Source: Hydrogenothermaceae bacterium (GTDB taxonomy: Bacteria > Aquificota > Aquificae > Hydrogenothermales > Hydrogenothermaceae). Taken from it: a stretch of 7,690 nt of DNA. How positions within the stretch are numbered: the stretch's first letter is position 1; every line of letters begins with the position of its first letter. The DNA is taken from the NCBI GenBank assembly GCA_026984415.1, contig JALSSE010000403.1:1-7690 (forward strand). Reading direction: 5' to 3'. The translations under genes and the position numbers were made by a program. The notes beneath the pieces were generated by a model. That model did not search any database and had not been told where the DNA came from. It saw only the letters and a list, made by a program, of their open reading frames with translations. Shown piece by piece: positions 2,888 through 6,491 of the stretch.

Positions 2888-2943
2888 AAATAATGTGTCC
2901 GAAATAAAACAAAAGAAATTTTCAAAACCAAGGAGGTCTTAAT

Positions 2944-3345
2944 ATGTTTAAAAACTTAGTAAAAGCTGGGGTAGTGTTATCGGCAACTGCAATTATATTC
3001 ACAGGTTGTGCTCCAAAAGATTATATTGACAGCCAGATTAAGCCAATTGCTAAAAAAGTCAACACTTTAGAGGAAAAGGTTAACAATTTAGAAGCTAAAG
3101 TTAACAACTTAGAAGCAGAAATAAACAGCTTAAAAGAAACAACTGCAAATAACTCAACTGAAATTCAAAATGTTGGAAAAGAGGTTGATATTTTAAAAGC
3201 TGAAACTGAAAGAATAAAAGCATCAGCAGATGACTGTAATGCAAAATGTGAACAGGCATTAAATAAAGTTAACGAATTAGAAGCTGAAATTAAAAGACAG
3301 TCTGAAAATGTAGAAAAATTACTACAAAAATCTTATAGAAAATAA
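2944..3345 (+). CDS. Lpp-like coiled-coil outer-membrane lipoprotein ending in Tyr-Arg-Lys
   Basis: A 133-residue predicted lipoprotein. Residues 1-21 form a signal peptide (K3, K7, then a hydrophobic core) ending in the lipobox F-T-G-C with lipidated Cys22. Ala at +2 would not hold it in the inner membrane by the E. coli rule. From about residue 32 to 126 every a and d heptad position can be read without a break: I32/I35, V39/L42, V46/L49, V53/L56, I60/L63, then on to V109/L112 and V123/L126. This indicates one long rod. Four tandem heptads (VNTLEEK, VNNLEAK, VNNLEAE, INSLKET) are nearly identical. Cys98 and Cys102 sit at core positions. The last residues, K-S-Y-R-K, match the K-Y-R-K end of E. 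coli Lpp, whose final Lys is bonded to peptidoglycan. The mature part is 112 residues against 58 in Lpp. It meets a LysM-YkuD transpeptidase gene tail to tail. Lipoprotein and coiled coil are seen directly; wall attachment is inferred. Confidence 0.85.
   Translation: MFKNLVKAGVVLSATAIIFTGCAPKDYIDSQIKPIAKKVNTLEEKVNNLEAKVNNLEAEINSLKETTANNSTEIQNVGKEVDILKAETERIKASADDCNAKCEQALNKVNELEAEIKRQSENVEKLLQKSYRK
3058..3141 (+). repeat. Four tandem 21-nt heptad repeats, with a fifth dispersed copy
   Basis: Four consecutive 21-nt units (3058-3078, 3079-3099, 3100-3120, 3121-3141) each encode one heptad of the coiled coil. Units 2 and 3 differ at only 3 of 21 bases; units 1 and 4 are more diverged. A fifth unit at 3268-3288 (VNELEAE) also matches unit 3 at 18 of 21 bases. 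The likeness includes synonymous positions, which points to duplication within the gene rather than only selection for heptads. Confidence 0.75.
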
Positions 3346-4626
3346 TTACTCAAAGGGGATTGCATATCCCCTTTGTAAAAGTTTTAATTTTATTTCATAA
3401 ATATTTTTCTTCTTTATATCCTTTATATAAGAAGATATTTTTTGTAAAAACTCATCTAAATCTATACTTCCATCTGTTGAAATTTCAACGTAAAGCTTTT
3501 TAGCTTTAAATCCAAACTTGTAGGGTAAATCTATAACTTTAACTTTTGTGCCTTCTTTTACCAAATCAAATAATCTTTCTACATCGTGGTTATACATCCT
3601 TATACAGCCGTGGCTTACTTTCATTCCTATTCCAAATTTTTTATTTGTTCCGTGGATAAGTAAAGCTGTATTTCCAAGTCTCATAGCTCTGGTTCCAAGA
3701 GGATTATCTTCTCCCGGTGGAAAAACATCTGGAAGTTCTGGATTTTCTTTTTTTATATTTTCTGGAACATACCATGAAGGATTTTCTCTTTTTTGTGAAA
3801 TTTCGTATTCTCCAGTTTTTGTTCCTGTTTCATCAGTTCCAATCCCGACTGGAAAAGTGATTACATATTTTTTTCCTTCTATTTCTGTAGGATAGTAAAG
3901 TCTTTTTTCAGAAAGGTTTATATAGATGGTGTTTAACTGGTAGTTTATTTCTGGAATAATTCTTCTCCGTGGAATTAAAATCATATCACCTTTTTTAATA
4001 GCAAATGGATTTATATCTGGATTTGCAAGCCTTAACTCAAAATAACCCATATCTGTCTGTTTGGCTATTTCAACAAGAGTTTGGTTTTCAGGGGAGATAT
4101 ACAGCTTATTTTCACCAAAAACTGTATTATCATCTTCTAAAAGGAAAATATTTTTTCCAAGTTCAAATCCTTTAACAGTTTTATACTCTTTCTCTAACTC
4201 ATTTTTTAAAAAAGAAAATTTATCAAAAAGGGTATTTACAATATCAAATTCCTCTTTTCTCTGGAAATACATCACAACCCTTGCTATTAAATCTCTTGAA
4301 AGATAATCCTTACCATAGGTCAAAACGAGTTTATAAAGTTTTTTTGAATTTCCAGTGTAGTAATAAGCTGCGACTAATGTTTGTATAACTTTACCTTTGT
4401 TTGGGTCATCTATTGGAGCTTTTTTTAAGTATTCTTCAGCTTTTGGAATAACAAGTGCATATAAACCATCAACGTATAATCCCTGTATCTGATAAAACAA
4501 TTCATTGAGATATTTTTCTTCTTCAAAAAGGAAAAATGGGTCTTCTGATATTATATTTTTTTTCTCTTCTGCGTGAATAAAAGAAAAAATAAATAACACA
4601 CTAAAAATAAAAATTACCCTTTCCAT
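3346..4626 (-). CDS. L,D-transpeptidase with helical N-terminal, LysM and YkuD domains (ErfK/YbiS/YcfS type)
   Basis: A periplasmic cell-wall enzyme. An ATG at 4626 gives 426 residues; a GTG at 4635 adds three. I prefer the ATG, because the GTG has a GGG only 2 nt upstream, too close for a ribosome site. Numbering from the GTG: signal peptide about 4-22 (cut after I-H-A), a TPR-like helical region about 45-165, a LysM domain about 178-222 (N-P-D-I-N-P-F...G-D-M-I-L-I-P), and a YkuD catalytic domain about 235-370. Catalytic motifs are H-G-T-N (His328) and S-H-G-C-I-R-M (His342, Cys344, the acyl-enzyme nucleophile). A C-terminal extension of about 60 residues follows. The LysM-YkuD core, with F-G-I-G-M-x-V-S before the Cys motif, resembles the E. 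coli enzymes that attach Lpp to diaminopimelate, more than minimal 3-3 cross-linkers. It is the last gene of the - strand cluster and converges with the Lpp-like lipoprotein with no intervening base. Which reaction it catalyses, tethering or 3-3 cross-linking, is not proved. Confidence 0.92.
   Translation of the reverse strand: MERVIFIFSVLFIFSFIHAEEKKNIISEDPFFLFEEEKYLNELFYQIQGLYVDGLYALVIPKAEEYLKKAPIDDPNKGKVIQTLVAAYYYTGNSKKLYKLVLTYGKDYLSRDLIARVVMYFQRKEEFDIVNTLFDKFSFLKNELEKEYKTVKGFELGKNIFLLEDDNTVFGENKLYISPENQTLVEIAKQTDMGYFELRLANPDINPFAIKKGDMILIPRRRIIPEINYQLNTIYINLSEKRLYYPTEIEGKKYVITFPVGIGTDETGTKTGEYEISQKRENPSWYVPENIKKENPELPDVFPPGEDNPLGTRAMRLGNTALLIHGTNKKFGIGMKVSHGCIRMYNHDVERLFDLVKEGTKVKVIDLPYKFGFKAKKLYVEISTDGSIDLDEFLQKISSYIKDIKKKNIYEIKLKLLQRGYAIPFE
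3351..3375. terminator. Bidirectional terminator hairpin inside the transpeptidase 3' coding end
   Basis: A perfect 10-bp stem pairs CAAAGGGGAT (3351-3360) with ATCCCCTTTG (3366-3375) around a 5-nt loop (3361-3365). Four G-C pairs form the core. On the + strand the stem runs into TTTGT and a T-rich stretch (3381-3395); on the - strand it is followed by TTTGAGTAATTATTTT. The hairpin lies 5 bp past the lipoprotein stop codon and encodes the final residues (Q-R-G-Y-A-I-P-F-E) of the transpeptidase. One element can therefore end both convergent transcripts. The T tracts are interrupted, so efficiency is uncertain. Confidence 0.65.
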
Positions 4627-4650
4627 ATTTTGCACAACCCACGTTTTATA

Positions 4651-5840: not shown

Positions 5841-6491
5841 TTATAATTTATCTATTGAATTAACTTCTATTTTTACAACTAATTCATTGTTGTAGAAAAT
5901 TTCAATAACTTTTTCTTTGTTATCAACATTATACAAATAATTTACTGTATAACTATGATATAAAACCTTTTTTGGTAAAAACCTTTTTCTATCCCTAATA
6001 TTTATAAAATCGTAAACAATGGTATAACTGTCTTTTTCAATAAAAAGAGTTTTTCCTTCACAGTGGAAATGTTCTTTTCCTTTCAAATTAAATTTACCAC
6101 TTATTATGTTCTGGAGAGGAATGTCTATATCAAAAAGAGCTTTAAGGTTAAAGATATTTTTAACACAGCCTTCTGTTTTATTTAGTTTAAAGCAGTACTC
6201 CCCATCTTTTAAAATTATCTCTCCAGCAAATAATCCAAAAGGAAGGTAAACTTTTATTTTTCCGTTGTCTTCATTTTTGAATATTCCTTTTATGTAAAGG
6301 TTAAGATTGTTGTAGATTAATCTCCCTTTAAATTGGAAGTTAGAAGGGATTTTATTGTCCTGAACTACTATCTCCCTGTAATATTCTTCACAGGTTAAAG
6401 GCTTTAACTTTAACCCTGCACACGATACTAAAAAACTTAATATAAAGGTGAAAAGTAAGAGTTTAATGTTCAAAATAAAATTCCTTCTCAT
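5841..6491 (-). CDS. LolB-like outer-membrane lipoprotein
   Basis: A 216-residue predicted lipoprotein. The basic N-terminus (M-R-R) and hydrophobic core lead to the lipobox L-V-S-C with lipidated Cys24 and Ala at +2, compatible with outer-membrane sorting. The rest is beta-rich. The stretch F-K-G-R-L-I-Y (54-60), then L-P-F-G-L-F-A-G-E-I (83-92) and the following turn resemble the half-barrel of LolB/DUF4292 proteins, where a G-R strand and a P-[FL]-G loop are typical. Context is the stronger argument: a TPR gene followed by lolB is a common order in proteobacteria, and the TPR gene here ends 49 nt upstream. LolB receives lipoproteins from LolA at the outer membrane, and this window encodes another lipoprotein that would need that route. 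Cys34, 100, 109 and 144 are unusual; 100 and 109 could pair. Sequence similarity alone is weak, so an unrelated envelope lipoprotein remains possible. Confidence 0.65.
   Translation of the reverse strand: MRRNFILNIKLLLFTFILSFLVSCAGLKLKPLTCEEYYREIVVQDNKIPSNFQFKGRLIYNNLNLYIKGIFKNEDNGKIKVYLPFGLFAGEIILKDGEYCFKLNKTEGCVKNIFNLKALFDIDIPLQNIISGKFNLKGKEHFHCEGKTLFIEKDSYTIVYDFINIRDRKRFLPKKVLYHSYTVNYLYNVDNKEKVIEIFYNNELVVKIEVNSIDKL

What the first reader, a model, noticed from the sequence alone, without database searches (positions are those of the whole stretch)
2944..4626. Possible Braun-type lipoprotein and its wall-attachment enzyme as convergent neighbours
The lipoprotein has a lipobox, a continuous coiled coil and the C-terminal Y-R-K of E. 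coli Lpp. The adjacent gene is an L,D-transpeptidase with the LysM-YkuD core of ErfK/YbiS/YcfS, the enzymes that bond the Lpp C-terminal Lys to diaminopimelate. Lpp is classically a gammaproteobacterial protein, so this pairing in a deep-branching, probably Aquificota genome would be an independent or ancient outer membrane-to-wall tether. Seen: motifs and adjacency. Known: the E. coli chemistry. Inferred: that this enzyme acts on this protein.
Basis: partly seen in the sequence, partly recalled or inferred. Interest (0 to 1): 0.78.

Follow-up and report, generated by a model that had tools for sequence, protein, structure and literature searches.

The report
Lpp-type wall tether in Aquificota
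A family of heat-loving bacteria appears to staple its outer membrane to its cell wall with a long rod-shaped lipoprotein and a neighbouring linking enzyme, much as E. coli does with Braun's lipoprotein, but neither the bond nor the enzyme's role has been shown yet.

Summary
In detail: a 133-aa lipoprotein ending in Lys lies stop-to-stop against a YkuD L,D-transpeptidase gene. Both first-reader tests were run on 41 related (Hydrogenothermaceae) genomes. The lipoprotein is in 38; its last residue is Lys in 39 of 39 best copies (window included) and 8 of 8 second copies, while the residue before it varies. The convergent pair is adjacent in 24 of the 36 genomes holding both genes, although flanking genes differ. 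The coil keeps one heptad register for 105 residues. The enzyme has the SHGCIR motif; the second YkuD protein read in 10 pair-bearing genomes lacks that Arg. The window also encodes a LolB-fold lipoprotein. E. coli has the same layout, lpp><ldtE. Best reading: an Lpp-type covalent outer membrane-wall tether, probably of separate origin, since the family was not found in 95 other Aquificota genomes. Caveats: no muropeptide data; adjacency is partly explained by a hairpin shared between the lipoprotein's 3' end and the enzyme's last codons; sequence does not separate anchoring from cross-linking enzymes; H. pylori HP0135 has a conserved C-terminal Lys yet was not wall-bound, although that species lacks the anchoring enzymes.

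The parts
2931..2936 (+). AGGAGG, ribosome-binding-site-like, upstream of the lipoprotein gene
   Evidence: sequence
2944..3345 (+). Lpp-type coiled-coil lipoprotein, 133 aa (mature 112 aa)
2944..3009 (+). signal peptide and lipobox IFTGC; Cys22 codon at 3007-3009
   Evidence: +2 residue Ala in 37 of 39 best copies, Ser in 2
3022..3336 (+). continuous coiled coil, single heptad register over 105 residues
3340..3342 (+). C-terminal Lys codon (AAA), proposed site of linkage to diaminopimelate
   Evidence: Lys in 39 of 39 best copies and 8 of 8 second copies
3351..3375 (.). 10-bp hairpin at the seam, shared by the lipoprotein 3' end and the last codons of the transpeptidase
3346..4626 (-). L,D-transpeptidase: signal peptide-like start, N-terminal helices, LysM-like region, YkuD domain
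3535..3930 (-). YkuD catalytic domain; Cys codon of SHGCIR at 3604-3606
5841..6491 (-). LolB/LolA-fold lipoprotein, candidate outer-membrane receptor for lipoproteins

Best explanation
The lipoprotein is an Lpp-type tether. After export it is lipidated on Cys22 and (inferred) delivered to the outer membrane, stands as a roughly 15-nm coiled-coil rod, and the YkuD enzyme next door joins the side-chain amine of its C-terminal Lys to the diaminopimelate of a wall stem peptide. Shown here: lipobox, continuous coil, invariant terminal Lys, transpeptidase-type active-site motif, MurE with the DNPR motif in relatives, conserved gene pair. Inferred: lipidation, outer-membrane location, trimer state, the amide bond, and that this enzyme makes it.
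For: Terminal Lys in 39/39 best and 8/8 second copies, including the 14 genomes where the lipoprotein is not beside the enzyme gene. In 23 aligned orthologues only C22, A23, K25 and the last Lys are invariant. The residue before the Lys varies: R, A, S, H, K, Q. The enzyme has SHGCIR in the 29 enzyme-bearing loci read; the second YkuD protein read in 10 of 24 pair genomes lacks the Arg, and three such proteins tested, two of them from pair genomes, match Pgp2 among solved structures. The window enzyme's best E. coli match of LdtA, B, C and E is LdtC (41% over 212 aa), an Lpp-anchoring enzyme (PMC12729407, passages). MurE DNPR motif in 13 of 13 genomes (its meaning is recalled). LolB-fold protein in the window. 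E. coli lpp and ldtE are convergent neighbours. Pfam PF11839, alanine-zipper outer-membrane lipoprotein, 31.1 bits over cut-off 23.1.
Against: No biochemical evidence. H. pylori HP0135 has a conserved C-terminal Lys but was not found in sacculi (PMC11768039, passages); that paper says the species lacks ErfK/YcfS/YbiS homologues. LDT anchoring and cross-linking functions cannot be told apart by lineage (PMC10434034, abstract and section 13); 11 of 37 family enzymes match LdtE, a cross-linker, best, and in E. coli the convergent neighbour of lpp is that cross-linker. PF04728 (Lpp) is not matched. The coil matches 116 Pfam families at E 0.1, so family scores mean little. G031 and G032 have the lipoprotein but no SHGCIR enzyme was found (they may be incomplete).
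Confidence: 0.72

Rival explanations
1. The enzyme is a 3-3 cross-linker like LdtE, and the lipoprotein is an outer-membrane coil that is not covalently attached. The genes stay together because they share a 3' hairpin.
For: The same layout in E. coli pairs lpp with ldtE, a cross-linker, while ldtA, ldtB and ldtC lie elsewhere. NCBIfam's best LDT model is LdtE, far below its cut-off. Shared hairpin. HP0135 precedent.
Against: It gives no reason for an invariant terminal Lys, also in the 14 genomes where the lipoprotein is not beside the enzyme gene and in the 8 second copies.
Confidence: 0.18
2. The terminal Lys serves another purpose, such as non-covalent contact with wall or enzyme, coil capping, or stability.
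For: HP0135 shows that a conserved C-terminal Lys can occur without linkage; Lys is the commonest last residue here, 77 of 364 ORFs.
Against: Invariance at the very last residue with a variable residue before it, and an SHGCIR-type enzyme relative in 36 of the 38 lipoprotein genomes, fit linkage better.
Confidence: 0.1
3. Origin rival (not exclusive of the best explanation): the tether is homologous to gammaproteobacterial Lpp, by old descent or transfer, and not an independent invention.
For: hhalign of the family profile with E. coli Lpp gives probability 93.7 over 50 columns; same convergent layout in E. coli; the window protein passes the NF040598 Lpp/OprI cut-off, 45.8 against 43.
Against: The aligned part is lipobox plus coil, which arise easily, and SMC and tropomyosin models also score. 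0 of 136 Aquificota genomes pass the NF040598 cut-off. The enzymes form their own group apart from EcLdtE, which sits on a long branch whose place is unsure.
Confidence: 0.25

Closest known systems
Braun's lipoprotein Lpp of E. coli with LdtA/LdtB/LdtC
   Same: lipobox, +2 residue not Asp, coiled coil, C-terminal Y-R-K in the window protein, transpeptidase related to LdtA/B/C/E; lpp lies convergent to an LDT gene
   Different: mature length 97-126 aa against 58 (PMC11768039); no PF04728 match; some members have CxxxC in the coil; a different phylum
OprI with LdtPae2 of Pseudomonas aeruginosa (PMC10434034)
   Same: divergent Lpp-type lipoprotein ending Arg-Lys, anchored by one LDT that also anchors E. 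coli Lpp at 24.8% Lpp/OprI identity (section 6)
   Different: proven chemically there, not here; the neighbourhood of the two genes there is recalled only
E. coli lengthened Lpp (Lpp+14, Lpp+21; PMC5736177)
   Same: added heptads keep wall linkage and widen the periplasm (passages); mature lengths here are multiples of 7 in 22 of 39
   Different: engineered there, natural variation here
HP0135 of Helicobacter pylori (PMC11768039)
   Same: small lipoprotein with conserved C-terminal Lys (passages)
   Different: 28-aa mature protein, anchoring LDT homologues reported absent, not found in the sacculus
LDT-attached outer-membrane proteins of Coxiella and Brucella (reviewed in PMC12729407)
   Same: LDT-made outer membrane-wall links other than Lpp (passages)
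   Different: most are linked near the N-terminus of beta-barrels; the Coxiella lipoprotein LimB27 through an internal Lys

Membership tests
Lpp / Braun lipoprotein | lipobox and lipidated Cys | tested here: met
   lipobox-like sequence in 39 of 39 best copies; lipidation itself not tested
Lpp / Braun lipoprotein | C-terminal Lys | tested here: met
   39 of 39 best copies, 8 of 8 second copies
Lpp / Braun lipoprotein | continuous coiled coil | tested here: met
   single register over 105 residues, window protein only
Lpp / Braun lipoprotein | homotrimer | not testable with these tools
   no multimer prediction
Lpp / Braun lipoprotein | Pfam PF04728 match | tested here: not met
   not among the best 25 of 116 listed for the window protein, where a score at its 29.1-bit cut-off would rank near the top
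Lpp / Braun lipoprotein | Pfam PF11839 alanine-zipper lipoprotein | tested here: met
   31.1 bits, cut-off 23.1, window protein; generic coil models score 25-26 bits below their own cut-offs
Lpp / Braun lipoprotein | NCBIfam NF040598 Lpp/OprI model | tested here: inconclusive
   window 45.8 bits over cut-off 43; 15 of 23 family members match at E 1e-5, scores not shown; 0 of 136 genomes over cut-off
Lpp / Braun lipoprotein | covalent amide to diaminopimelate | not testable with these tools
   needs muropeptide mass spectrometry
Lpp / Braun lipoprotein | outer-membrane location | not testable with these tools
   +2 residue Ala or Ser in 39 of 39; LolB-fold protein in the window
L,D-transpeptidase (YkuD) | PF03734 domain | tested here: met
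   88.1 bits, cut-off 23.4
L,D-transpeptidase (YkuD) | S-x-G-C-h-R motif of transpeptidases | tested here: met
   SHGCIR in the 29 enzyme-bearing loci read
L,D-transpeptidase (YkuD) | LysM domain of the ErfK/YbiS/YcfS/YnhG type | tested here: inconclusive
   no PF01476 hit at E <= 0.1; aligned with LdtE model positions 32-253 and with 4lzh, TM 0.81 by target
Lpp-anchoring LDT (LdtA/B/C) as opposed to cross-linking (LdtD/E) | substrate preference | not testable with these tools
   best E. coli match LdtC 24, LdtE 11, LdtB 2 of 37 (LdtD not included); published lineages do not separate the functions

The most novel reading that the evidence does not exclude
One family of Aquificota, the Hydrogenothermaceae, evolved its own Lpp-type covalent outer membrane-wall tether, independently of Gammaproteobacteria. 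Its rod is about twice as long and has changed length mostly in whole coiled-coil heptads, so the living species form a natural series of periplasm rulers; in most of them its gene is locked to the linking enzyme's gene by a hairpin that both share.
Probability: 0.5. Interest if true: 0.82.

Novelty: new variant of a known kind. Interest (0 to 1): 0.72.

Why it matters
A published survey found Lpp (PF04728) only in a subset of Gammaproteobacteria (PMC8263019, section 11). A Lys-ended lipoprotein with its own transpeptidase across a thermophile family would suggest that this way of holding the outer membrane to the wall arose, or was kept, elsewhere, and that Pfam-based surveys miss such proteins. 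Cultured relatives (Persephonella, Sulfurihydrogenibium) make the question testable by standard muropeptide analysis, and the natural length series tests whether tether length sets periplasm width outside E. coli.

Tried and rejected

PDB search with the lipoprotein profile: 347 matches at E 0.1, 60 shown, coiled-coil proteins such as tropomyosin, reovirus sigma-1 and SMC, no Lpp among those shown. Not used.

Coil matches as family evidence: SMC, tropomyosin and similar models also score, so family scores carry little weight here.

Ancient origin in all Aquificota: not supported. In the 95 genomes outside the family the best profile matches are E 2.4e-10 or weaker, against 2.6e-29 or stronger in 38 of the 41 family genomes. 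Small lipoproteins of another (unnamed) Aquificota group, found with NF040598 and readable in 5 of 7 loci, end in K, Q, E, Q, Q (1 of 5 Lys; L255, L258-L261); no YkuD gene stands beside them in the stretches read; L254 and L262 gave no readable copy.

The idea that the LolB-like gene is followed by ispE as in Gammaproteobacteria was tested in two relatives and failed (the neighbour matches transketolase).

Adjacency as strong proof of function: down-weighted because of the shared hairpin.

Co-occurrence: lipoprotein and pair-type enzyme both found in 36, lipoprotein only in 2, neither in 3 of 41 genomes (exact probability 0.0009). Given little weight: missing contigs and relatedness can produce it; some enzyme frames counted are cut by a contig end or hold an internal stop.

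A survey of lpp-LDT adjacency across Gammaproteobacteria could not be done; only E. coli K-12 was seen, and P. aeruginosa oprI/PA2854 adjacency is recalled.

Full report
OBSERVATION. The lipoprotein ORF (2944-3345, +) and the transpeptidase ORF (3346-4635, -; ATG at 4626) are present as described, with stop codons back to back. The enzyme's domain is YkuD (PF03734, 88.1 bits). NCBIfam's nearest models are LdtE, PRK10190 and PRK10260, all well below their cut-offs. Pfam does not report LysM, but the AlphaFold2 model (pLDDT 90.4) matches the Klebsiella enzyme 4lzh (TM 0.81 by target). The N-terminal third is predicted as helices.

WHOSE GENOME. No genome is held for the window. The best genome-collection hit to the enzyme is an assembly titled Hydrogenothermaceae bacterium (L001 = G001), and the named protein hits nearest the top are Aquificae, Persephonella, Sulfurihydrogenibium and Venenivibrio. 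In the enzyme tree the window is sister to G014 and next to G011-G013.

THE TERMINAL LYS. The lipoprotein family is in 38 of 41 genomes. The last residue is Lys in all 38 best copies, in the window, and in 8 of 8 tandem second copies. Of 23 members aligned, only C22, A23, K25 and the last Lys are invariant. The residue before it is R 20, A 11, S 4, H 2, K 1, Q 1 of 39. Lys is the last residue of 77 of 364 ORFs in the same loci, family members included, so chance would give about one in five at most; the 39 fall into 21 groups at 70% identity (relatedness is not modelled). Lys is also conserved in the 14 genomes where the lipoprotein is not beside the enzyme gene, so the neighbouring gene does not impose it.

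THE ROD. The window coil keeps one heptad register over 105 residues (70% LIVMF at a/d, 4% elsewhere; 0 of 2000 shuffles). Mature lengths run from 97 to 126 and 22 of 39 are multiples of seven (12 of 21 after thinning at 70% identity). E. coli with two or three added heptads in Lpp stays linked and gains periplasm width (PMC5736177, passages). By the usual helix rise (recalled), 105 residues span about 15 nm, roughly twice E. coli Lpp.

THE PAIR. The genes are convergent neighbours in 24 of the 36 genomes that hold both, with -12 to +9 bases between stops. The outer neighbours fall into seven clusters on the lipoprotein side (that of G005 may stem from an over-long ORF call) and five on the enzyme side (one is a fragment in G030's broken locus); 15 or so Persephonella-type genomes share the same flanks, the window shares neither. 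On the tree the arrangement needs three changes, at least two. In G001, G014, G015, G033 and G034-G041 the genes are apart; G031 and G032 have the lipoprotein only. In E. coli K-12 lpp (+) and ldtE (-) are also convergent neighbours, 63 bases apart, whereas ldtA, ldtB and ldtC lie elsewhere.

A REASON TO DISCOUNT ADJACENCY. The seam holds a hairpin, CAAAGGGGAT-TGCAT-ATCCCCTTTG in the window (dG -15.3 kcal/mol, z -4.08). It follows the lipoprotein stop and at the same time encodes the enzyme's tail RGYAIPF. A stem of at least 6 pairs was found in 23 of 23 seams aligned (no null run there; G008 and G029 of the 25 were left out: G008 has a different tail with a hairpin further on, G029 matches G028). 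Seven seams folded against dinucleotide shuffles gave z from -2.05 to -4.08; with 90-base stretches and simple shuffles z ran from -0.7 to -5.8 over 25. Stem letters differ between lineages on both arms. Pro codons in the enzyme tails are CCC in 19 of 28, against 309 of 3217 elsewhere (related genomes). In G014, where the genes are apart, the enzyme keeps the tail ERGYAIPFK but the stem is weak (-2.8 kcal/mol, z -0.59), and the lipoprotein has a different hairpin (-16.1, z -5.28). In the window the scan calls the seam terminator-like only on the minus strand; in several relatives the plus-strand tail is rich in T. The hairpin by itself could keep the genes together.

THE ENZYME'S JOB. SHGCIR is found in the 29 enzyme-bearing loci read. 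One search finds two YkuD matches in 22 of the 24 pair genomes and one in G006 and G010. The second protein, read in 10 pair genomes, has V, I or A in place of the Arg after the catalytic Cys; that of G009 was not recovered and the rest were not read. Three second proteins (G016, G018 and the unlinked G014) match four solved sequences, two of them named Pgp2; the best, 7o21, is uncharacterised and 4xzz is Csd6 by recall. So in the pair genomes read, the pair enzyme is the only YkuD protein with the transpeptidase motif; in G036 another YkuD with SSGCIR exists. Published work warns that anchoring and cross-linking enzymes do not form separate lineages (PMC10434034, abstract and section 13). The window enzyme's best match among E. 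coli LdtA, B, C and E is LdtC; over 37 family enzymes it is LdtC 24, LdtE 11, LdtB 2. MurE has the DNPR motif in 13 of 13 genomes, which by recalled knowledge marks diaminopimelate addition.

GETTING TO THE OUTER MEMBRANE. The +2 residue is Ala or Ser in 39 of 39. The window's own gene 5841-6491 encodes a lipoprotein-like protein whose model (pLDDT 82) has LolB as its five best PDB matches (TM 0.49-0.55 by query, 9-13% identity); relatives are found in 35 of 41 family genomes at E 0.01. OmpA-domain proteins, the usual non-covalent tethers, are in 39 of 41, so the proposed link would be additional.

RELATION TO KNOWN LPP. PF04728 is not matched; PF11839 is. NF040598 is passed by the window protein and by none of 136 Aquificota genomes. 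Profile comparison with E. coli Lpp gives probability 93.7 over lipobox plus coil, which does not prove descent. A published survey found Lpp only in some Gammaproteobacteria (PMC8263019, section 11). The family was not found in the 95 other Aquificota genomes, and small coil lipoproteins of another Aquificota group end in Lys in 1 of 5 read. I find independent origin somewhat more likely than descent, but this is not settled. A verrucomicrobial lipoprotein with conserved Cys, Tyr and C-terminal Lys has been compared with Lpp before (PMC10260701, passages), so the idea of Lpp-like ends outside Gammaproteobacteria is not new in itself.

LITERATURE. Searches with Aquificota or Persephonella terms listed 10 of 10, 15 of 4,443 and 10 of 11 papers; none of those titles and abstract openings reports such a tether in Aquificota. 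Most subscription journals are not in that library. Counter-precedent: HP0135 of H. pylori (PMC11768039, passages).

CHANGES ON CHECKING.

Noticed in passing
window 3351-3375; 24 relatives (L213-L223, L226-L238): A hairpin right after the lipoprotein stop is embedded in the last codons of the convergent transpeptidase gene, with changes on both arms between lineages, and is weak where the genes are apart (G014). A dual-use 3' end.
   Followed up: yes
window 5841-6491 (-): Lipoprotein-like protein without Pfam or NCBIfam match whose predicted fold is LolB/LolA; next to a TPR protein in the window and to an untested gene of about 490-500 aa in many relatives. A LolB candidate in Aquificota.
   Followed up: partly
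L143, L145-L149, L159, L160 (G015, G035-G041): A second coil protein in tandem with the lipoprotein; 7 of 8 copies have no lipobox match, yet all 8 end in Lys. The one seen in full (L147) looks secreted.
   Followed up: partly
window 2944-3345, residues 98 and 102; G001, G011-G015, G034-G041: A Cys-x3-Cys pair inside the coil in the window and 14 of 38 relatives, absent from the other 24; possible disulfide.
   Followed up: no
L254, L255, L258-L262 (G049-G064): Another Aquificota group has small coil lipoproteins, most beside a longer lipoprotein of 186-192 aa, between genes that look by eye like carB and guaA; 1 of 5 read ends in Lys.
   Followed up: partly
L247 2272-2985 (G136) and similar loci L248-L252: Coiled-coil protein with a LysM domain (PF01476, 37.1 bits in L247) beside a small coil protein in a further Aquificota group; possible non-covalent wall contact.
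   Followed up: no
one search list, e.g. G011:C13:80144-80389: A separate protein of about 360-440 aa matches only the N-terminal helical region of the transpeptidase in many family genomes.
   Followed up: no
L285 1365-3263 (G014); L286, L288 (G013, G012): The Pgp2-like YkuD protein of the window's nearest relatives is about 600 aa with an extra N-terminal part; in G014 that part matches TPR designs weakly.
   Followed up: no
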